In this document: in pieces, positions 41,795 through 51,953 of the stretch
Layout of the letters: each line of letters opens with the position of its first letter
Position numbering within the stretch: the first letter of the stretch is position 1
NCBI GenBank assembly: GCA_018644665.1
Contig: JABGQA010000058.1
Span: forward strand, 388,810 to 452,809
Length of the DNA: 64,000 bases
Origin: Candidatus Poribacteria bacterium
Lineage (GTDB): Bacteria; Poribacteria; WGA-4E; GCA-2687025
Direction of reading: 5' to 3'
Program-made: the position numbers and the translations under genes
The notes under the pieces: model-generated
The model's input: the letters and a program-made list of their open reading frames with translations, nothing else
The model's database searches: none
What the model was told of the DNA's origin: nothing

Positions 41795-44700
41795 GTGTTG
41801 CCCCGCTCAGCAAGGGGACGATTCGCCCGCTTCGCTCGGATGGCCTGTGTTGCGCTGATAGCCATCGCCATCTGCGCCCGCGCGACGGAGCAGCGCATCA
41901 GCTTCGGCCGCGATGTCCGCCCCATCCTCTCGGACAAGTGCTACGCGTGCCACGGCCCGGACGAAGCGCAGCGCCAGGCAGGACTGCGTCTCGACACAAA
42001 GGAGGGCGCGCTGACCGACCCAAGCGGAATGCCCGTCATCGTGCCCGGCAAGCCGGACGAGAGCGAGGTCGTCGAGCACATCACTGCCGAGGACCCCGAC
42101 CACCGAATGCCGCCGCCGGACGCCAATCGGCAGTTGACTCCCGAAGAGATCGAGACGCTCGTTGAGTGGATCAGGCAGGGAGCGGAGTGGGAAGACCACT
42201 GGGCGTACAGCGCGCCGGAGCGGGCGGAGAAGCCGGTCACGTCCGACGGCGCATGGGCCAACGATATCGACCGGTTCGTCCTGTCGCGTCTGGCCGTCGA
42301 GGGGATCGAACCGGCGCCCGAGGCCGACAGGCCGACGCTGATCCGGCGCCTCACGTTCGACCTCACCGGCCTGCCGCCGACCCCCGCCGAGGTGGACGCA
42401 TTCGTCGCAGACGCCTCGCCGGAAGCCTACGAGAGGGTAGTCGACCGCCTGTTGGGGTCACCCCGCTACGGCGAGCGCATGGCGACACATTGGCTCGACC
42501 TCGTGCGTTACGCCGATACCTCCGGCTACCACTCCGACGAGGAGGTCAGCGTCTGGCCGTACCGCGATTACGTGATTCGCGCCTTCAACGGGAACATGCC
42601 CTACGACCGCTTCACGCGGGAGAATCTGGCGGGCGACCTGCTCCCGAATGCAACACGCGACCAGAAGGTCGCCTCGGCATTTAACCGCCTGAACCAGACG
42701 ACCGCCGAGGGCGGCGCCCAGGCGAAGGAATACCACGCAATCTACGCCGCCGACCGAGTGCGCGCGACATCCACCGTGTGGCTCGGCGCGACGATGCAGT
42801 GCGCCCAGTGCCACGATCACAAGTTCGATCCATTCACGACGAAGGACTTCTACAGCTTCGCGGCGTTCTTCGCCGATGTGGAGGAACGCGGCGTGTACCG
42901 CGGAGGCAGCAAGTGGGAACCCGTCGTTATGCTGCCGACCGATGAACAACAGCGGCGCCTGGACGCGGTCGACCACGAGCTTTCTCGCCTACGGGAGATG
43001 TACGAAGCCCCGCGACCCGGACTGGACGCCGACAGACGCGCGTGGGAAGCCGGGCTGCTAGGCCGGTTGGACTCCGCCGAATCCGCCGAGTACGTATGGG
43101 TCGACGACCAGGCCGCAGGCGCTCCGGCAGACGAGGACGGCGGCGGGTCCGGGCCGGAGCCGCTGAGCGGGGCATCCTCGGTGCGCCTGACGACCGAGGA
43201 AGACGCCATCGTACAGCACGTCGCGCGCGGTATGGCGCGTCCGCTGGCACTGGCCGAAGGCGACACCCTCTTCGCCCACGTTTGGGTTGACCCGGAGAAC
43301 GCGCCGTCCGCCGTCATGCTGCAGTGGAACGACGGGAGTTGGGAGCATCGGGCCTTTTGGGGCGAGGACACGATCGAATACGGGGACATCGGAGCCGACG
43401 GTCCGGCGCACAAGCCGATGGGGCCACTGCCGACCGCCGGCGAGTGGGTCAAGCTCGAAGTAGACTCCGCCGCGGTAGGCCTTGAACCGGGCAAGCCGGT
43501 CCGGCAGATGTCGTTCACGCAGTTCGGCGGATCGGCGTATTGGGACAAGGCGGGCGTCGACACGACCGTCGCGGGCGTTGCCGCCAACGAGCACCCCGCC
43601 GACATCCTGGCGGGCCTGCGCGTACCCGAGATCGTGCGCACCGGCGACAGGCAGTCGGCCATCGTTGGACACTACCGAACGCTGACGCCGAAGCTCGCGC
43701 TGATACGCGACGAGATGACCACGTGGCTCCAGAAGCGCGCCGCGGCCGAGAAGGAGGTCGCGTACTGCGTCACGACAGTGTCCAGGCAGCCGCGACCCGT
43801 GCGCGTGTTGCCGCGCGGAAACTGGATGGACGACTCGGGCGAGATGGTCTATCCCAACACGCCGGAGTTCCTGCCACAGCTCAAGTCGGACCCGTTGCGT
43901 AGGCCGACGCGACTCGACCTCGCGAACTGGTTGATCTCACGTGAGAACCCGCTGACGGCGCGGGCGTTCGTGAATCGCTTCTGGGCGATCTTCTTCGGCG
44001 CGGGCGTCGCGCGAGTGATGGACGACCTGGGATCGCAGGGCGCGCGGCCCGACCATCCGGAGTTGCTCGACTGGCTGGCGGTGGAGTTCATGGACAGCGG
44101 CTGGAACGTCAAGCACATCACTCGGCTCATGGTCACATCGAGCGCGTACCGGCAATCCTCGAAGCCGACGCCCGCCCTGCTCGAGCGCGATCCGTATAAC
44201 CACCTGATCGCCCGCCAGTCTCGCCGCAGACTCGACGCGGAGATGATCCGAGACAACGCGCTGGCCCTGGCAGGCCTGCTGGTCGATGACATCGGCGGCC
44301 CGAGCGTCCGGCCGTACCAGCCGGCCGGGTACTACGCCCATCTGAACTTCCCCAAGCGCGTGTACATGCACGACTCGGGTGAGTCTCAGTACCGACGCGG
44401 TCTGTATACACACCGACAGCGCACCTTCCCACACCCGAGTCTGATGGCGTTCGACGCGCCGAGCCGGCAGGAATGCGCCGCCGAGCGGCCGATGTCCAAC
44501 ACGCCGACACAAGCGCTGACGCTGCTGAACGACCCCAGCTTTGTCGAGGCGGCCATAGCGTTCGCCGCGCGTATCGTCCGGGAAGGGAGCGAATCCCCGG
44601 CGGAGCGCATCACGTGGGCGTATCGTCACGCGCTGGCGCGCGCCCCGGCTGCCGATGAGCTGGAGGTCGTGACCGCGCTGTACGAGAGCCATGCGGGCCA

Positions 44701-44848
44701 ATACGCCACCGACGCGGAGGCCGCCGACGGCCTCATTCACGCTGGCGAAACGCCGCCCCCCGACGACATCGCCCCTGCGGAACTGGCCGCTTGGACCTCC
44801 GTGGCGCGTGTAATGCTGAACCTGCACGAGGGCGTCACGCTCTACTAG
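41795..44848 (+). CDS. Planctomycete-type cytochrome (PSCyt1-PSCyt2/DUF1549-DUF1553) protein
   Basis: 1017 residues, starting at the GTG at 41795 with TAGGAGG upstream and a signal peptide (to about residue 30). A PSCyt1 domain (PF07635) carries one haem site at residues 49-53 (CYACH) with the PGKPDESEVVEHI and DHRMPPP segments. The DUF1549 domain (about 150-360) contains LTGLPPTPAEVDAFV and HWLDLVRYADTSGYHSDEE, a second haem-like CAQCHDHKFDPFT and the PSD1/DUF1553 end (RLDLANWLISRENPLTARAFVNRFW, here cited as separate short parts; SNTPTQALTLLND). It pairs with DUF1501 next to it. Thought to act in polysaccharide breakdown coupled to electron transfer. Confidence 0.92.
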   Translation: MLPRSARGRFARFARMACVALIAIAICARATEQRISFGRDVRPILSDKCYACHGPDEAQRQAGLRLDTKEGALTDPSGMPVIVPGKPDESEVVEHITAEDPDHRMPPPDANRQLTPEEIETLVEWIRQGAEWEDHWAYSAPERAEKPVTSDGAWANDIDRFVLSRLAVEGIEPAPEADRPTLIRRLTFDLTGLPPTPAEVDAFVADASPEAYERVVDRLLGSPRYGERMATHWLDLVRYADTSGYHSDEEVSVWPYRDYVIRAFNGNMPYDRFTRENLAGDLLPNATRDQKVASAFNRLNQTTAEGGAQAKEYHAIYAADRVRATSTVWLGATMQCAQCHDHKFDPFTTKDFYSFAAFFADVEERGVYRGGSKWEPVVMLPTDEQQRRLDAVDHELSRLREMYEAPRPGLDADRRAWEAGLLGRLDSAESAEYVWVDDQAAGAPADEDGGGSGPEPLSGASSVRLTTEEDAIVQHVARGMARPLALAEGDTLFAHVWVDPENAPSAVMLQWNDGSWEHRAFWGEDTIEYGDIGADGPAHKPMGPLPTAGEWVKLEVDSAAVGLEPGKPVRQMSFTQFGGSAYWDKAGVDTTVAGVAANEHPADILAGLRVPEIVRTGDRQSAIVGHYRTLTPKLALIRDEMTTWLQKRAAAEKEVAYCVTTVSRQPRPVRVLPRGNWMDDSGEMVYPNTPEFLPQLKSDPLRRPTRLDLANWLISRENPLTARAFVNRFWAIFFGAGVARVMDDLGSQGARPDHPELLDWLAVEFMDSGWNVKHITRLMVTSSAYRQSSKPTPALLERDPYNHLIARQSRRRLDAEMIRDNALALAGLLVDDIGGPSVRPYQPAGYYAHLNFPKRVYMHDSGESQYRRGLYTHRQRTFPHPSLMAFDAPSRQECAAERPMSNTPTQALTLLNDPSFVEAAIAFAARIVREGSESPAERITWAYRHALARAPAADELEVVTALYESHAGQYATDAEAADGLIHAGETPPPDDIAPAELAAWTSVARVMLNLHEGVTLY

Positions 44849-44877
44849 CAGCGAACGGACGACCCACAGGAGTCCCC

Positions 44878-46311
44878 ATGACCCCAAGGACGGTGAAACA
44901 GCGGCGGCTGGCGAGCGTCACGCGTCGCACTTTTCTGGGCAAAGCCGGCCGCGGCGTCGGTTCGTTGGCTCTTGCATCCATGCTGGATCCGGCGGCGCTG
45001 ATGGCCGCTTCGGACGCTGATGGATGGGGCGGGGTCGCCACGCCGGTCCTCCCGGCGAAGGCCAAGCGCGTTATCCACCTGTGCATGGCGGGCGGCCCCT
45101 CGCACCTGGAGACGCTCGACCACAAGCCGGACCTCGCGGCCCTCGACGGCGAGCCGATGCCCGCGTCGTTCACGCAGGGACAGCCGATCGCGCAGCTGCA
45201 GGGCGCCGAGCTGAAGTGTCTCGCGCCGCAGTACGCGTTCCAGCGGCACGGTGAGTCCGGTCAGGAGATCAGCGACGCGTTCCCACACATCGCCGGCATC
45301 GCGGATGACATCTGCATCGTCCGCTCGCTGCAGACGGAACAGATCAACCACGACCCGGCGCACACGTTCATGAACACGGGCACGGCCATCGCCGGCCGCC
45401 CCAGCATGGGATCGTGGTGGCTGTACGGCCTGGGGAGCGAGGCGGCCGACCTGCCGGGATTCGTCGTTCTCATCTCTTCAGGTGGCGGGCAAGATCAGCC
45501 CATCGCGACGCGGCAATGGCACAGCGGCTTCCTTCCCGGCGAGTTCCAGGGCGTGCAGCTTCACTCCGCAGGCGATCCGGTGCACTACGTGAACAGTCCT
45601 CAGGGCGTGGGGGTGGACCGGCAGCGTGATGTCGTCGATGCGGTGCGACGCCTCGACGGCATGCGTGGCGCAGCAGTCGACGACCCCGCAGTGAACGCGC
45701 GCGTGCGACAGTACGAGATGGCGTTCCGCATGCAGACAAGCGTCCCCGACCTGGTGGACATGTCCGACGAACCCGAACACATCTTGGAGCTGTACGGCGC
45801 GGAGCCGGGCGACGGCTCCTTCGCCTCCAACTGCCTCTTCGCCCGGCGTCTCGCGGAGCGCGGCGTCCGGTTCATCCAGCTCTACCATCGCGGCTGGGAT
45901 CACCACGGGAACATCAAGAAGGGCATCGAGGACACGTCCGCGCTCGTGGACCAGGCGTCGGCGGCGCTTGTGACGGACCTGAAGCAGCGCGGCATGCTCG
46001 ACGATACGCTCATCATCTGGGGCGGTGAGTTCGGGCGGACGCCGATGGCACAGGGCTCGGGGCGCGACCACCACATACGCGGGTTCTCGATGTGGATGGC
46101 CGGCGGCGGAATCAAGGGAGGCGTGACGTACGGCTCCACTGATGAACTCGGCTACTACGCCGTCGAGAACATAGTCCACGTGCACGACCTACACGCGACG
46201 ATGCTCCACCTGTTCGGCGTGGATCACACGAAGCTCACGTACCGGTTCCAGGGGCGCGATTTCCGGCTGACCGACGTGCACGGCCACGTCGTCCAACCGA
46301 TTCTCGCGTAG
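44878..46311 (+). CDS. DUF1501 protein with twin-arginine signal
   Basis: 477 residues, starting at the ATG at 44878 with CAGGAG upstream. The N-terminus has a Tat motif (TRRTFLGKAGRG) and a hydrophobic segment to about residue 40. The DUF1501 (alkaline-phosphatase-superfamily-like) body includes HLCMAGGPSHLETLDHKP, INHDPAHTFMNTG, GRPSMGSWWLYGLG, YHRGWDHHGNIKKG and IIWGGEFGRTPMAQGSGRDHH, which supply metal-site Asp/His residues. It follows the PSCyt gene by 29 bases, the usual arrangement of this partnership in planctomycete-type genomes. Probably periplasmic and sulfatase-like in fold; substrate unknown. Confidence 0.92.
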   Translation: MTPRTVKQRRLASVTRRTFLGKAGRGVGSLALASMLDPAALMAASDADGWGGVATPVLPAKAKRVIHLCMAGGPSHLETLDHKPDLAALDGEPMPASFTQGQPIAQLQGAELKCLAPQYAFQRHGESGQEISDAFPHIAGIADDICIVRSLQTEQINHDPAHTFMNTGTAIAGRPSMGSWWLYGLGSEAADLPGFVVLISSGGGQDQPIATRQWHSGFLPGEFQGVQLHSAGDPVHYVNSPQGVGVDRQRDVVDAVRRLDGMRGAAVDDPAVNARVRQYEMAFRMQTSVPDLVDMSDEPEHILELYGAEPGDGSFASNCLFARRLAERGVRFIQLYHRGWDHHGNIKKGIEDTSALVDQASAALVTDLKQRGMLDDTLIIWGGEFGRTPMAQGSGRDHHIRGFSMWMAGGGIKGGVTYGSTDELGYYAVENIVHVHDLHATMLHLFGVDHTKLTYRFQGRDFRLTDVHGHVVQPILA

Positions 46312-48132: not shown

Positions 48133-49269
48133 TCAGAACCGATCCCCCGGCCACATGTGCGCGTAGCCGCCAGGGAACAGCACGGCGAGCAACGGGGCCG
48201 CGTCGGGTGGGATGTTGGCATCGCCGGACGCCGCGAGCGCCTGCGGACCGAGATAGCCTGCCATCATCTGCGTGAGTCGCGCTTGCGACATCTCCACACG
48301 GAGAACATCTCCCGGCGGAATCTCGTCTGAAGCACGGACGGCGCCGCGGGACACGCGCAGTGAAGCTACGCCGATGTCTGTGACGAAGGCGAGCGAGCCG
48401 ACCCACTCCGCAAGAGGCGAAGCGCGCAGTCGCCGGCCGAGCAACGGGGTCAGCGTCTCGAAGAGCGGAAGCAGCCGGAGAATCCTGAACATGCCCCCGC
48501 CCGTACGCGGCCACCGAACGCGGACGGCGCGACCGGGCGCCACGAGGAACCGCGAGAGCGCATCGTCGGGGGCGACCGAGTACTCGCAATGGGCCACACC
48601 TGCGGCATGCGCTTCGCCCGCCACCAGAGATGTCAACGGCGCGATCGCCGCCATCGACGCGTAGCCGACCTCGTCCACGACGCACACGCCCTCCTCGAAG
48701 CGAAGCGCCGCGTAGCCGCACGGCTTCCCATCGGTATCCACGAGCACACGGACGGCGGCGTCCTCGTGGAATCCCGTGTCGTTGTCGATGCCTTCGTCGC
48801 GGCCCGCGTATGGCCAGGCAGCCGGATCGCGCACACGGCTGAGCGTGCGATGTCGCGCCACGCCGCTGTGCATGCGGCATATGGCCGGCCGGTGATCGCG
48901 ACGGTACAGCACGCTGCGATACTCCGCCAACGAAGGGCACGCCGACGCAGCGACGCGCAGGGAGTATTCCGGCAGAGCGCACGCATACGCCCAGCGCTCA
49001 TAGAAGTCGCCGATGCCGAACAGGCCCGCGAGATCGTACCCCTGCCGGATCATGTGCCGTGTCGACTGTTCTATGATGCGGCGCGCGAAGCCGCGCCCAC
49101 GGTGCTCCGGCCGCGTCTCGACCCACGCGAGCCCACCGGCCTGTATTGGCACGTCGCCGATACGGACCTGCATCGGGATCACGAGCAACGAACTGACGGC
49201 CTCACCGGCCAGCTCCAGTTCGATGCGCGCGACCCCGTCGGCATCGGTGTGCGTGCTGAGTGTGGGCAT
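48133..49269 (-). CDS. Eis-like GNAT acetyltransferase
   Basis: A 378-residue protein of the Eis/enhanced-intracellular-survival-like type: an N-terminal GNAT domain (GGLAWVETRPEHRGRGFARRI carries the acetyl-CoA motif, with FGIGDFYERWAYACALPEY after it), a second GNAT-like fold (about 130-260, DTDGKPCGYAALRFEEGV) and a C-terminal SCP2-like domain (VSRGAVRASDEIPPGDVLRVEMSQARLTQMMAGYLG, in parts). Known members acetylate amines on aminoglycosides or proteins. It converges with the GH13 gene. A terminator hairpin separates it from the selenoprotein upstream. Confidence 0.85.
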   Translation of the reverse strand: MPTLSTHTDADGVARIELELAGEAVSSLLVIPMQVRIGDVPIQAGGLAWVETRPEHRGRGFARRIIEQSTRHMIRQGYDLAGLFGIGDFYERWAYACALPEYSLRVAASACPSLAEYRSVLYRRDHRPAICRMHSGVARHRTLSRVRDPAAWPYAGRDEGIDNDTGFHEDAAVRVLVDTDGKPCGYAALRFEEGVCVVDEVGYASMAAIAPLTSLVAGEAHAAGVAHCEYSVAPDDALSRFLVAPGRAVRVRWPRTGGGMFRILRLLPLFETLTPLLGRRLRASPLAEWVGSLAFVTDIGVASLRVSRGAVRASDEIPPGDVLRVEMSQARLTQMMAGYLGPQALAASGDANIPPDAAPLLAVLFPGGYAHMWPGDRF

Positions 49270-49297
49270 GCGGAGCGCTTGATGTCCCTGTAGCCAA

Positions 49298-49326
49298 GAC
49301 GCCCCGCCAGAAGTCGGCGGGGCGTC
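49298..49326 (-). terminator. Terminator hairpin after the selenolipoprotein gene
   Basis: A perfect 11-bp stem GACGCCCCGCC/GGCGGGGCGTC (49298-49308 with 49316-49326) with a 7-base loop lies 41 bases after the stop at 49368 and reads into TTGGCT on the minus strand. Confidence 0.65.
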
Positions 49327-49367
49327 GGGAGAGGCGCTACATCGTGTGCAACGCGCCTGGGTTAAGG

Positions 49368-49730
49368 TCAGTCGGCGACGGCGGCCTCGAACTGGCCCGG
49401 CGTGCCGTTCATACCGGGGGCGCCGTTAACGAGGCCAACCAGGTCATCGGGGCTGACGACTGCGGGGTCGTATTCGATGGTGGCCGCTCCGCCGGCGAGG
49501 TCGATCGTCGCCGCCGACACGCCGCTCGCTCCCTCAAGTGCTGACGCAACCTGCGCCGAGCACCCGGTTCAGCGCATCCCCGTGACGCTGAGCGTCGCGG
49601 AAGCCAGCGTGGTCTGCACTTGCGCCTCGGGTGGCGCCATATCCTGCGCCATCGGCACGGGGGCCTTCGACCCGCAACCGATGACCGCCGCCGCCGCGAT
49701 CGCGGCGATGGGGTACGTCACTCTCTTCAT
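49368..49730 (-). CDS. Heavy-metal-associated-domain selenolipoprotein (Sec54 encoded by in-frame TGA)
   Basis: The frame reads 53 codons from the ATG at 49730, meets TGA at 49571-49569, and continues in frame to a true stop at 49368, giving 120 residues. Residues 1-19 form a lipoprotein signal (AAAVIGC, lipobox V-I-G-C). Residues about 45-110 form a heavy-metal-associated (MerP/CopZ-type) ferredoxin-like fold: LSVTGM-R-U-T-G-CSAQVASALE, then VSAATIDLAGGAATIEYDP and DDLVGLV. The usual GMxCxxC motif becomes GMR-U-TGC, so selenocysteine replaces the first metal-binding cysteine. A SECIS-like hairpin lies at the expected distance. GGAG is about 10 bases upstream. Likely a periplasm-facing metal or redox carrier. 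It is downstream of the molybdo-hydroxylase and has its own candidate promoter. MerP-type selenoproteins have been described in bacteria; this lipid-anchored version may be new. Confidence 0.92.
49538..49563 (-). promoter_or_regulatory. Bacterial SECIS hairpin of the selenolipoprotein gene
   Basis: Counting from the base after TGA, 6-10 (GUGCU) pair with 27-31 (AGCAC), C11 is bulged, and 12-16 (GGCGC) pair with 22-26 (GCGUC, one G-U). The apical loop AGGUU occupies 17-21, 16 bases from the UGA. A bulge below an upper stem and a loop beginning A-G-G-U is close to the E. coli fdhF SECIS. Confidence 0.82.
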
Positions 49731-49790
49731 GCTGAGAAGCTCCAGTGGGTGGACGACGCGTCCTCACGCGGCGCGCCAGCGATCCAGATC

Positions 49791-49820
49791 ACACTACGGC
49801 GCCGAGAAGAGTCCGTGCAA
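49791..49820 (-). promoter_or_regulatory. Candidate promoter of the selenolipoprotein gene
   Basis: On the minus strand TTGCAC (49820-49815), an 18-base spacer and TAGTGT (49796-49791), about 60 bases before the ATG at 49730 and just after the stop of the molybdo-hydroxylase gene. Confidence 0.4.
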
Positions 49821-49832
49821 AGCCAATCGCGG

Positions 49833-51953
49833 CTATGCGAGCGACAGCGGCATCGACCGCGAGCGCACGCCGGCCGCGTCGAAGATCGCGTTCGCGATCG
49901 CCGGTGCAACGGCGACAATAGGCGTCTCGCCGGCGCCGACCGAGGGGAGATCCGGTCGGTTCAGCAGATGGATGGACATCGGCGGGACGTCCGTGAAGCG
50001 CGGCACGCGGTACTGGTGCAGGGACGCGTTGAGGATGCGCCCGTCCTCGAACGCCATCGCCTCCGTGAGCGCGCCCCCGAGACCCATGATGATGCATCCG
50101 CGCACCTGGGCATCGAGGTTGACGGGGTCCTGAATCGCGCCACACTCGAACGTCTGCCAGATGTGACGCAGGTCGATGCCGCGCCGCTCCTCGTCGACGA
50201 CCACCTCTGCACACGCCGCGACGTACGAGCCCTTTTCCGTGCCGCACGCCAGCCCCATGCCTACGCCGGGGGTTCGCGACCGTCCGGCCCAGTCGGCTCG
50301 TTCCGCGACGTCCTCGAGGACGGCGCGCAGGCGCTCGTGCGACAACCGCGCAAGTCGGAACGCCAACGGATCCTGCCCGGCCGCGTGCGCGAGTTCGTCC
50401 ATAAGCGACTCGCGTGCGAACACGTTCGCCGTCGAACCCAACGCGCGATAGGAGCCCTGACGCAAGGGGCCGTCCGCGTCGAGGCTGCGTGTCACTACGT
50501 TCGGCACATCGTACGGCGTGTCGAGCGCCGACCCGCCCGCGTTTGTCGTCTCGAATTCCCACGCGGCAAGCGAGCCGTTCTCGTCGAGGCCGCCACGCCC
50601 TTCGATGACCGCCGATGGGCGGAAGTACGCCCACGTGAACTCCTCTTCGCGCGTCCACCGCAGCGATACCGGAACGCCGACGGCCTTCGCCATGCGCGCG
50701 GCCTCGATGGCGGTCTCACCCGAGTGCTTCCCGCCAAATCCGCCGCCCGTATCCGGCACGATCACGCGCACGCTGTCCGCCGGTAGGCCGAACGCCTCGG
50801 CGACCTGCCCGTGCACGCGCGTGGGAACCTGGCTGCCGGTCCACACAGTGACGCGGCCGTCCGCCCATTCCGCGACGGCGGCGCGCGGCTCCATCGGCAC
50901 GTGCTGGATGTACGCGACTTCGTAGGTCGCTTCGACGACGCGTGCGGCGTCCGCGAACGCGGCGTCCGTAGAGCCGGCGGACGTCCCTCGCGACCGTCGC
51001 CCGTCGGACGCGCGCGACGTCTGCTTCAGGTGTGCGAACAGGTCCCCGCTGTTCGTGTGCGGCTCGTGCGTCCACGTCGCGCCCGCGGCAACCTGCGCCA
51101 CGGCCTTGCGAGCGGCGTGAGACGTGGGAGCGACGCACGCCACGAAGTCGCCGTCCACGACGACCTGCACGCCTTCCATCCCCTCAGCGGACGCCGTGTC
51201 CACGCCTACCAGGTCCGAGAGGTATCGTGGCGCCCGCAGCACGGACCCGTACAGCATCCCGGGTCGGCTGACGTCGGACGGGAACTTGTGCGCGCCGGTC
51301 ACCAAGTCGCGGATGGCCGGCCGAGGCGCGAGTCCCCCAAGGACCTCCCACTCGTCGACGGACGTCACGGCAACACCGTCGTCCTGGCCCGCCCGGAACG
51401 AGGCGGCGATGTCCTTGTCCGCCGCAAGTTCCGCGTATGAAGCGCGCTCGCCGGTTGCCGCGTGTGCGGCGTAGCCGTCGCTCAACGTCACCTCACCCGC
51501 GGTGACATTCCACCGTCGCGCCGCGCCTTGCGTCAGCAACTCACGAGCTGCCGCGCACGCGCGCCGGACGTCGGGGATGTTGCTGGGCGTCGTGCGGCTT
51601 CCGAACGTCCCGCCGTCGTCGGGGGTCAGTCCCGTGTCACCGAGGATCAGCCGAATGCTGTCCATCGGCGCGCGCAGCTCCTCGGCGGCCGCCATGGTGA
51701 ACTGCTTGCGCGCGCCCTGGCCGACATCCACCTTCCCGGTCATCACAGTGATGACGCCGTCCTCACCGACATGTAGTCTCGCGGCCACGGAGCCCTCGGG
51801 CGCCGCTCCAGGGTCTGCAGCGCCGGACGCGACGGCCGAGTATGTCGTCACGAGCAGTCCCGCGCCGAGGAGTTGGAGAAACGACCTACGGGTCATCCCG
51901 GCGCCTAGGCCCATGTCGCCGAGGTCATCTGCGGTGTGAAGGCGTGCGCTCAT
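49833..51953 (-). CDS. Molybdo-hydroxylase large subunit (xanthine dehydrogenase/isoquinoline oxidoreductase type)
   Basis: 706 residues, starting at the ATG at 51953 (MSARLHTADDLGDMGLGAGM, then the twin-arginine motif TRRSFLQLLGAG, so Tat-exported). It overlaps the small-subunit stop by 4 bases (ATGA), and GGGGAGGCG precedes it. The molybdopterin-binding domains include DVGQGARKQFTMAAAEEL, DGGTFGSRTT, MEPRAAVAEW, TGGGFGGKHSGE, TWAYFRP and the final GAGETPIVAVAPAIANAIFDA, whose glutamate is the base in catalysis. The layout resembles IorB-type enzymes. It hydroxylates an aldehyde or N-heterocycle outside the cytoplasm. Substrate unknown. The longer upstream frame overlaps the small subunit and is not used. 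Confidence 0.9.
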   Translation of the reverse strand: MSARLHTADDLGDMGLGAGMTRRSFLQLLGAGLLVTTYSAVASGAADPGAAPEGSVAARLHVGEDGVITVMTGKVDVGQGARKQFTMAAAEELRAPMDSIRLILGDTGLTPDDGGTFGSRTTPSNIPDVRRACAAARELLTQGAARRWNVTAGEVTLSDGYAAHAATGERASYAELAADKDIAASFRAGQDDGVAVTSVDEWEVLGGLAPRPAIRDLVTGAHKFPSDVSRPGMLYGSVLRAPRYLSDLVGVDTASAEGMEGVQVVVDGDFVACVAPTSHAARKAVAQVAAGATWTHEPHTNSGDLFAHLKQTSRASDGRRSRGTSAGSTDAAFADAARVVEATYEVAYIQHVPMEPRAAVAEWADGRVTVWTGSQVPTRVHGQVAEAFGLPADSVRVIVPDTGGGFGGKHSGETAIEAARMAKAVGVPVSLRWTREEEFTWAYFRPSAVIEGRGGLDENGSLAAWEFETTNAGGSALDTPYDVPNVVTRSLDADGPLRQGSYRALGSTANVFARESLMDELAHAAGQDPLAFRLARLSHERLRAVLEDVAERADWAGRSRTPGVGMGLACGTEKGSYVAACAEVVVDEERRGIDLRHIWQTFECGAIQDPVNLDAQVRGCIIMGLGGALTEAMAFEDGRILNASLHQYRVPRFTDVPPMSIHLLNRPDLPSVGAGETPIVAVAPAIANAIFDAAGVRSRSMPLSLA

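What the first reader, a model, noticed from the sequence alone, without database searches (positions are those of the whole stretch)
49368..49730. Hidden selenoprotein: lipid-anchored heavy-metal-associated domain with UxxC instead of CxxC
Seen directly: a single frame of 121 codons interrupted only by TGA at residue 54, exactly where the HMA motif GMxCxxC has its first metal cysteine (GMR-U-TGC). The flanking protein is intact, with a V-I-G-C lipobox, and a SECIS-like hairpin has its AGGUU loop 16 bases after UGA. MerP-type selenoproteins have been reported in bacteria; a lipobox-bearing, single-HMA form next to a molybdo-hydroxylase is not one I know. Selenolate would alter affinity for Hg, Cu or As and give redox activity, suggesting a metal trap or electron carrier rather than a chaperone.
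Basis: partly seen in the sequence, partly recalled or inferred. Interest (0 to 1): 0.93.

Follow-up and report, generated by a model that had tools for sequence, protein, structure and literature searches.

The report
Lipid-anchored selenium metal-binding protein family
A small gene in a relative of the Poribacteria has an in-frame UGA stop codon exactly where a metal-binding domain has its first cysteine; it is predicted to be read as selenocysteine, giving a likely membrane-anchored metal-binding selenoprotein, and genes with UGA at the same place occur in most genomes of its class, often cut short or misread in the public proteins looked at here.

Summary
On the minus strand, 49730-49368 encodes 120 residues with one in-frame TGA (49569-49571) at residue 54, the first metal Cys of an HMA domain (GMR-U-TGC), behind a V-I-G-C lipobox. 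The genome has selA, selB, tRNA-Sec and selD (itself with an in-frame TGA). The 40 nt from UGA form a hairpin meeting the published bacterial SECIS model. The decisive evidence is comparative: HMA proteins, mostly single-domain with a lipobox, carry TGA at the same column in 53 of the 54 class genomes fetched (of 82; the named relatives are Poribacteria). In nearly all of them a hairpin starts 18 nt after UGA, synonymous codons are frozen only there, and dN/dS beyond it is about 0.19. The family also forms tandem arrays (3-4 Sec-HMA, one Cys-HMA) and a cytochrome c-WD40-HMA fusion. HMA selenoproteins are known (MerP-like, UxxU, ATPase), so this is a new variant of a known kind. Metal and function are inferred: a periplasmic soft-metal (Cu(I)/Hg(II)) ligand is most likely, a redox carrier the main rival. 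The molybdo-hydroxylase neighbour is probably incidental.

The parts
49368..49730 (-). Gene for the lipobox-bearing single-HMA selenoprotein, 120 residues, Sec at residue 54, terminal TGA stop at 49368-49370
   Evidence: ORF open apart from one TGA
49569..49571 (-). In-frame TGA predicted to be read as selenocysteine (residue 54, first metal Cys of GMxCxxC)
   Evidence: same column TGA in relatives
49560..49562 (-). Cys57, second ligand of the UxxC motif
   Evidence: invariant in 13 of 13 rows
49535..49566 (-). SECIS-like hairpin: 8-bp lower stem, bulged C, 6-bp upper stem, GGU triloop (49549-49551), 17 nt between UGA and loop
   Evidence: -19.6 kcal/mol, z -3.47; for the background rate; model constraints from PMC13188914 (passages)
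49434..49595 (-). HMA domain, residues 46-99
   Evidence: PF00403 43.4 bits; model beta-alpha-beta-beta-alpha-beta; nearest folds ATP7B, MerP, CopZ domains
49674..49685 (-). Lipobox V-I-G-C (residues 16-19), predicted lipidation at Cys19
   Evidence: read by eye; Cys invariant in 13 of 13 rows
49740..49743 (-). GGAG, possible ribosome-binding site 9 nt before the ATG
   Evidence: read by eye

Best explanation
The gene most likely makes a lipid-anchored HMA-domain selenoprotein: its UGA at codon 54 is predicted to be read as selenocysteine by the genome's own SelA, SelB, SelD and tRNA-Sec, directed by the hairpin that starts a few bases after the codon, and Sec54 with Cys57 would then hold a soft metal such as Cu(I) or Hg(II) on the outer face of a membrane. 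Shown: the frame, the TGA position, the HMA domain, the lipobox motif, the machinery genes, the predicted hairpin, and a class-wide family with TGA at the same column, frozen hairpin codons and purifying selection after the TGA. Inferred: that Sec is really inserted, that the protein is exported and lipidated, and that the task is capture of soft metal (protecting or loading periplasmic proteins) rather than redox chemistry. The tandem arrays with 3-4 Sec-HMA domains plus one Cys-HMA fit a metal-holding role better than a catalytic one, because a catalyst would hardly need many copies of one site.
For: Machinery in G000: selA 564 bits, over cut-off; tRNA-Sec 74.2 bits, anticodon TCA; selB 343 bits; selD 346.5 bits with one internal TGA. 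SelB is 93% identical over 646 aa to the same-genus genome G001, so that contig fits the lineage. selB is found in 73 of 82 class genomes at E <= 1e-60. Family: TGA at the HMA motif in 53 of 54 class genomes whose family loci I fetched, and in 40 of 41 named Poribacteria loci; 120 of 153 distinct HMA contexts in the 164 loci held then have TGA (many loci were fetched because a TGA had been seen, so this is no frequency). Hairpin GUGCA-GGA/GUC-UGCAC or a paired variant in 101 of 113 distinct 3' contexts; 10 of the other 12 keep 4 of 5 pairs. Covariation: 96.8% of cells paired, 5 double-change cells, 0 of 500 shuffles; 2 pairs with such a change, 7 of 500 (57 of the 111 contexts listed). Val GTG 108 of 109 in the hairpin against 260 of 1221 Val codons elsewhere in the same genes; Ala GCA 107 of 107 against 197 of 732. 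Cys-HMA domains of L132 and L142 lack the hairpin (1-2 of 5 pairs). dN/dS beyond the hairpin: median 0.19 over 865 pairs, none >= 1. Fold.
Against: No protein or selenium data. The window gene has no close orthologue that I found: no match with the family alignment in its own genus (G001, 79% complete), and for the four other genomes of its family the only rows I could see were long open frames of 718-838 aa without a stop, probably P-type ATPases (their rows were not listed). Its hairpin differs in place and sequence from that of the rest of the class (loop at 17 nt, not 23), so covariation in the family does not test it directly. The 91-nt fold is ordinary, and the selD piece is not unusually stable (z -0.55). 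One family member folded alone (43 nt) prefers another structure that pairs the UGA itself, not the conserved hairpin. Sliding the structure by +1 gave more double-change cells (13 against 5), though only 28% of cells then pair. None of 8 neighbouring ORFs scanned is a metal-transport or mer gene by Pfam, so metal identity rests on the domain alone. No protein in the 5.8-billion set matched the window protein on its own at E <= 1e-3.
Confidence: 0.72

Rival explanations
1. Same selenoprotein, but the UxxC pair works as a selenenyl-sulphide redox couple: a membrane-tethered thiol/selenol carrier or reductase in the periplasm.
For: UxxC is a usual redox motif of selenoproteins (PMC13188914, passages); one fusion joins the domain to a Planctomycete cytochrome c domain and WD40 repeats; an f6 neighbour (L152) is a multiheme cytochrome by Pfam; the window neighbour is a molybdo-hydroxylase.
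Against: The domain is HMA, not thioredoxin-like; in tandem arrays one domain keeps Cys; neighbours are not conserved in the loci scanned; no reductase partner was seen in the ORFs scanned.
Confidence: 0.2
2. The TGA is a real stop: the window gene is a recent nonsense allele of a Cys lipoprotein, or a sequencing error, and only the relatives are selenoproteins.
For: One base separates TGC or TGT from TGA; the close relatives searched yielded no visible orthologue; G008 has a relative with TGA plus a TAG in frame, so decay may occur in the family.
Against: The TGA is at the exact column where relatives have TGA; a strong SECIS-like hairpin follows at the right spacing; selD of the same genome has a TGA followed by a predicted hairpin with the same GGU loop; selA, selB, selD and tRNA-Sec are present.
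Confidence: 0.05
3. TGA is reassigned to Trp in this lineage (as table 4), so no selenium is involved.
For: Some public ORF sets read this codon as W (8 of the 25 proteins I fetched of 120 listed).
Against: The window gene itself ends in TGA; Trp is not a metal ligand of the Cys kind; tRNA-Sec(TCA), selA, selB and selD are present; Cys domains of L132 and L142 lack the hairpin that TGA domains keep.
Confidence: 0.01

Closest known systems
MerP (TIGR02052), periplasmic mercury-binding protein of mer operons
   Same: Exported single HMA domain with a two-residue-spaced ligand pair; nearest folds include MerP 1osd and 1afi
   Different: 27.4 bits against a cut-off of 92.55; lipobox instead of a cleaved soluble signal peptide (MerP's peptide recalled, not tested); Sec at the first ligand; no mer genes among 8 neighbours scanned. 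A Sec-containing 'Mercuric transport protein MerP' with 2 sequences is listed for the Global Ocean Sampling set in PMC2398784 (passages); its architecture was not seen
NF041115 UxxU metal-binding (seleno)protein
   Same: HMA-like selenoprotein; the best NCBIfam match by E-value (47.9 bits); matched by 26 of 26 members scanned
   Different: Below the cut-off of 95; UxxC, not UxxU; the model is 74 positions long, without room for the lipoprotein part
NF045683 MerT/CopZ fusion-like heavy metal transport selenoprotein
   Same: Selenoprotein with a CopZ-like domain; 25 of 26 members match at E <= 0.001
   Different: 18.5 bits against 375 for the window protein; no MerT part
Cation-transporting ATPase E1-E2 selenoprotein (UxxC)
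   Same: UxxC motif in a metal-transport protein (PMC13188914 Table 1 passage)
   Different: P-type ATPase; the window protein matches only HMA in Pfam
CopZ/Atx1 chaperones and the tandem HMA domains of ATP7B
   Same: Same beta-alpha-beta-beta-alpha-beta fold and GMxCxxC site; the tandem arrays resemble the ATP7B N-terminus
   Different: All Cys; cytosolic or fused to an ATPase (recalled)

Membership tests
Bacterial selenoprotein | In-frame UGA aligned with Cys of homologues | tested here: met
   Residue 54 falls on the HMA Cys; relatives carry TGA, TGC or TGT there
Bacterial selenoprotein | SECIS hairpin just after UGA: loop 3-9 nt, upper stem 4-16 bp, G[G/U] in the loop, 16-37 nt spacing, MFE <= -7.5 (PMC13188914, passages) | tested here: met
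   Loop GGU, 6-bp upper stem, 17 nt, -19.6 kcal/mol; 115 of 1414 TGAs of the window also pass such a filter
Bacterial selenoprotein | selA, selB, selD and selC in the same genome | tested here: met
Bacterial selenoprotein | Selenium in the protein | not testable with these tools
   needs 75Se labelling or mass spectrometry
HMA domain (PF00403) | Profile match over the gathering score | tested here: met
   43.4 bits against 24.8 with C at residue 54
Bacterial lipoprotein | Signal peptide with lipobox and Cys | tested here: inconclusive
   VIGC read by eye; permissive pattern met in 104 of 120 family contexts; no signal-peptide predictor was run
MerP (TIGR02052) | Curated score cut-off 92.55 | tested here: not met
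   27.4 bits
MerP (TIGR02052) | mer operon context | tested here: not met
   8 neighbouring ORFs by Pfam, no mer gene
NF041115 UxxU metal-binding selenoprotein | Curated score cut-off 95 and UxxU motif | tested here: not met
   47.9 bits; motif is UxxC

The most novel reading that the evidence does not exclude
Poribacteria have built a periplasmic selenium-based metal buffer of their own: lipid-anchored Sec-HMA beads, often in tandem gene pairs, plus strings of up to four Sec-HMA domains and a cytochrome-WD40-HMA fusion, which would hold Hg(II), Cu(I) or a like metal as selenolate far more tightly than a Cys-only chaperone. It would also give a concrete client for the Sec machinery reported in most sponge-symbiont bins of one study (PMC5649159, passage).
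Probability: 0.35. Interest if true: 0.85.

Novelty: new variant of a known kind. Interest (0 to 1): 0.72.

Why it matters
A family seen in most genomes of a bacterial class lies largely hidden because gene callers stop at UGA: of 25 public relatives fetched (of 120 listed), 12 look like tails that begin after a UGA and 8 carry Trp at the Sec position. It places selenium in an exported metal-binding domain instead of an enzyme active site, and some members carry 3-4 Sec residues in repeated domains. Sec and Cys domains inside one protein, with the hairpin kept at UGA and decayed or decaying beside Cys, give a natural control for SECIS function and make the question 'what does Sec add to metal binding?' directly testable.

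Tried and rejected
A search of the protein set with the window protein alone gave nothing at E <= 1e-3; only the family alignment reached relatives. Rfam gave no SECIS match (one weak chance match). The + strand reading of the interval gives no sensible protein. Conserved operon partners: looked for in the window and in nine relative loci (neighbour ORFs of the relatives scanned) and not found; PhyH genes recur beside f2 and f8 members, with no metal link seen. Synteny in the window's own family: the acetyltransferase neighbour has only 34-35% matches, in 2 of 5 genomes. Spread outside the class: among the rows listed only G115 of 63 non-class genomes shows a TGA member (L071, GMSUPFC); the list was cut at about E 1e-4, and G115 is the only held genome of its phylum. 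A wrong-frame translation of L160 was discarded and redone in the right frame. In one search my first motif matching was off by the insert length ('nomotif' 61); one search replaces it. Sigma-70 promoter and intrinsic terminator scans of 49250-49900 found nothing.

Full report
What is there. On the minus strand, 49730-49368 is one frame of 120 residues broken only by TGA at residue 54, window 49569-49571. The product has a lipobox (V-I-G-C19), a short linker and an HMA domain at residues 46-99 (PF00403, 43.4 bits with C at 54, cut-off 24.8). The TGA takes the place of the first Cys of GMxCxxC. An AlphaFold model of the Cys form (26 rows, mean pLDDT 70.9, ten-residue means 78-90 from residue 41 on) has the beta-alpha-beta-beta-alpha-beta order; its nearest solved folds include ATP7B, MerP and CopZ domains. 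GC by codon position stays coding-like after the TGA: 0.62/0.58/0.89 before, 0.73/0.58/0.81 after.

Machinery. The window's genome (G000, 7.47 Mb, 92.9% complete, 5.3% contamination) has selA (564 bits), selB (343 bits) and tRNA-Sec on contig C144 (ARAGORN tRNA-SeC, anticodon TCA), and selD on C129 with one internal TGA (346.5 bits). SelB is 93% identical to that of the same-genus genome G001 and 45.7-47.7% to three more distant class members (a fourth locus given gave no line), so the contig fits the lineage. selB is present in 73 of 82 class genomes at E <= 1e-60, and in 53 of the 54 that are at least 90% complete and at most 5% contaminated.

The family. Searching 145 genomes with the window protein brought up many short frames in the same class with exactly one TGA inside. 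Read through, 35 fetched loci show mostly lipobox + HMA proteins with GMTUGAC and like motifs, often two genes in tandem. With a 13-row alignment, 80 of 82 class genomes have a match at E <= 1e-8 (some of these will be ATPase HMA domains). I checked the place of the TGA by sequence in 53 of the 54 class genomes whose family loci I fetched (G009 has Cys; G008 has TGA plus a TAG). Counting the listed rows by hand, 72 of 82 have at least one match whose only internal stop is TGA, G008 being a 73rd; for those not fetched the place of the TGA was not checked. The list is cut. The nine without a listed TGA row are G001-G005, G007, G009, G011 and G077; of these, G005, G007 and G011 also lack a selB hit. 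The six TGA-bearing genomes without a selB hit (G053, G065, G069, G070, G073, G080) are 73-83% complete. A scan of named genomes with a 5-row alignment gave 41 loci, all titled Poribacteria, 40 of them with TGA at the motif, several with contig lengths equal to those of class members here (34114, 46119 and 5849392 bases). So the class is that of these Poribacteria (inference).

Sec column and hairpin. In 164 loci, 153 distinct HMA contexts had 120 TGA, 16 TGC, 15 TGT and 2 without the motif; loci were partly chosen for a TGA, so this is not a rate, and many Cys cases are ATPases. Of 113 distinct 3' contexts, 101 carry a 5-bp stem (G-U allowed) with a 3-nt loop, GUGCA-GGA-UGCAC being commonest, 18 nt after UGA (21 nt in two with a one-codon insert), with paired swaps such as GUGCG-GUC-CGCAC and GUACA-GUC-UGUAC; 10 of the other 12 keep 4 of 5 pairs, and the remaining two (window, L071) lack this element. 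On 57 of the 111 listed contexts 96.8% of cells pair and 5 cells have changes on both sides (0 of 500 shuffles); against this, sliding by +1 gives 13 such cells but only 28% paired, and one member folded alone prefers a different structure. The stronger sign is codon freezing: in the hairpin Val is GTG in 108 of 109, Gln CAG in 103 of 103, Asp GAT in 61 of 61 and Ala GCA in 107 of 107, while elsewhere in the same genes Val is GTG in 260 of 1221 and Ala GCA in 197 of 732. Where the domain has Cys, the hairpin is gone in L132 and L142 (1-2 of 5 pairs) and one pair short in L053 and L069. Beyond the hairpin dN/dS has median 0.19 over 865 non-independent pairs, none >= 1.

The window's own hairpin. 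It lies 17 nt from UGA to loop and has the GGU triloop. It meets every constraint quoted for bacterial SECIS in PMC13188914 (passages). It scores z -3.47 with 0 of 200 shuffles as good, though a 91-nt piece scores only z -0.43; 3 of 1414 window TGAs pass the filter at this energy. The TGA in selD of the same genome is followed by UCCAGC-GGU-GCUGGA with the same loop at 20 nt, but that 42-nt piece is not unusually stable (z -0.55). A shared loop suggests a shared SelB target (inference). GCAGGUUGC also resembles the E. coli fdhF element (recalled).

Other forms. L053 has five HMA domains (four TGA, one Cys; Pfam 5 stretches), L069 four (three TGA, one Cys) and L132 four (three TGA, one Cys). 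L160 joins a Planctomycete cytochrome c domain, WD40 repeats and an HMA with TGA, and L159 carries a like frame. L147 and L148 have one extra residue, U-x-x-x-C. L063 holds a paralogue that has lost TGMTUGACTS, and L145 one with an added TAG.

What it does. Context does not tell: the window neighbours are a molybdo-hydroxylase and a GNAT acetyltransferase, and neighbours in the other lineages scanned differ. From the domain I infer a membrane-anchored periplasmic ligand for soft metal; the repeated Sec domains favour holding over catalysis. A redox carrier is the main rival. Neither was tested.

What is known. PMC13188914 (passages, Table 1 among them) lists UxxU metal-binding, a putative mercuric transport protein (PF02411) and a cation-transporting ATPase among selenoproteins, but the terms HMA, PF00403, MerT, Poribacteria, lipoprotein and NF045683 do not occur in its text. 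PMC2398784 (passages) lists a Sec MerP with 2 sequences. In the passages seen of PMC9312934 and PMC12013277 nothing of this form appears. No held paper has both 'Poribacteria' and 'selenoprotein'; two have 'Poribacteria' and 'selenocysteine': PMC5649159 (one passage) reports SelA and SelB together in most symbiont bins of various phyla of a sponge and missing in most related references, and PMC9999580 has the word only in its reference list. Subscription papers are not held, so absence is only from this library. NCBIfam has no model whose cut-off the window protein passes. So: a new variant of a known kind.

Noticed in passing
L165:1531-1533 (G000 contig C129): selD of the window's genome has its own in-frame TGA with a predicted GGU-loop hairpin behind it; it is likely a selenoprotein itself.
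   Followed up: partly
L160:534-2210 and L159: Planctomycete cytochrome c - WD40 - HMA fusion with TGA at the HMA Cys.
   Followed up: partly
L053:3053-4273, L069, L132: Tandem HMA arrays with 3-4 TGA domains and one Cys domain.
   Followed up: partly
L044:1300-1797, L053:1456-1950, L061:1506-2003: Neighbouring 164-165 aa lipoprotein-like frame with GMTRFTS or GMPRFTS, similar in start and motif region but without the Cys pair; no Pfam match for the L162 copy.
   Followed up: no
L071:2044-2110 (G115, another phylum): Exported-looking protein with a GMSUPFC HMA, outside the class.
   Followed up: partly
window 41795-46311: PSCyt1-DUF1549-DUF1553 protein followed by a DUF1501 protein, a pair often seen in Planctomycetes (pairing recalled; domains).
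   Followed up: no
window 49298-49326: GC-rich inverted repeat between this gene and the acetyltransferase gene (by eye); no T run, so not scored as a terminator.
   Followed up: no
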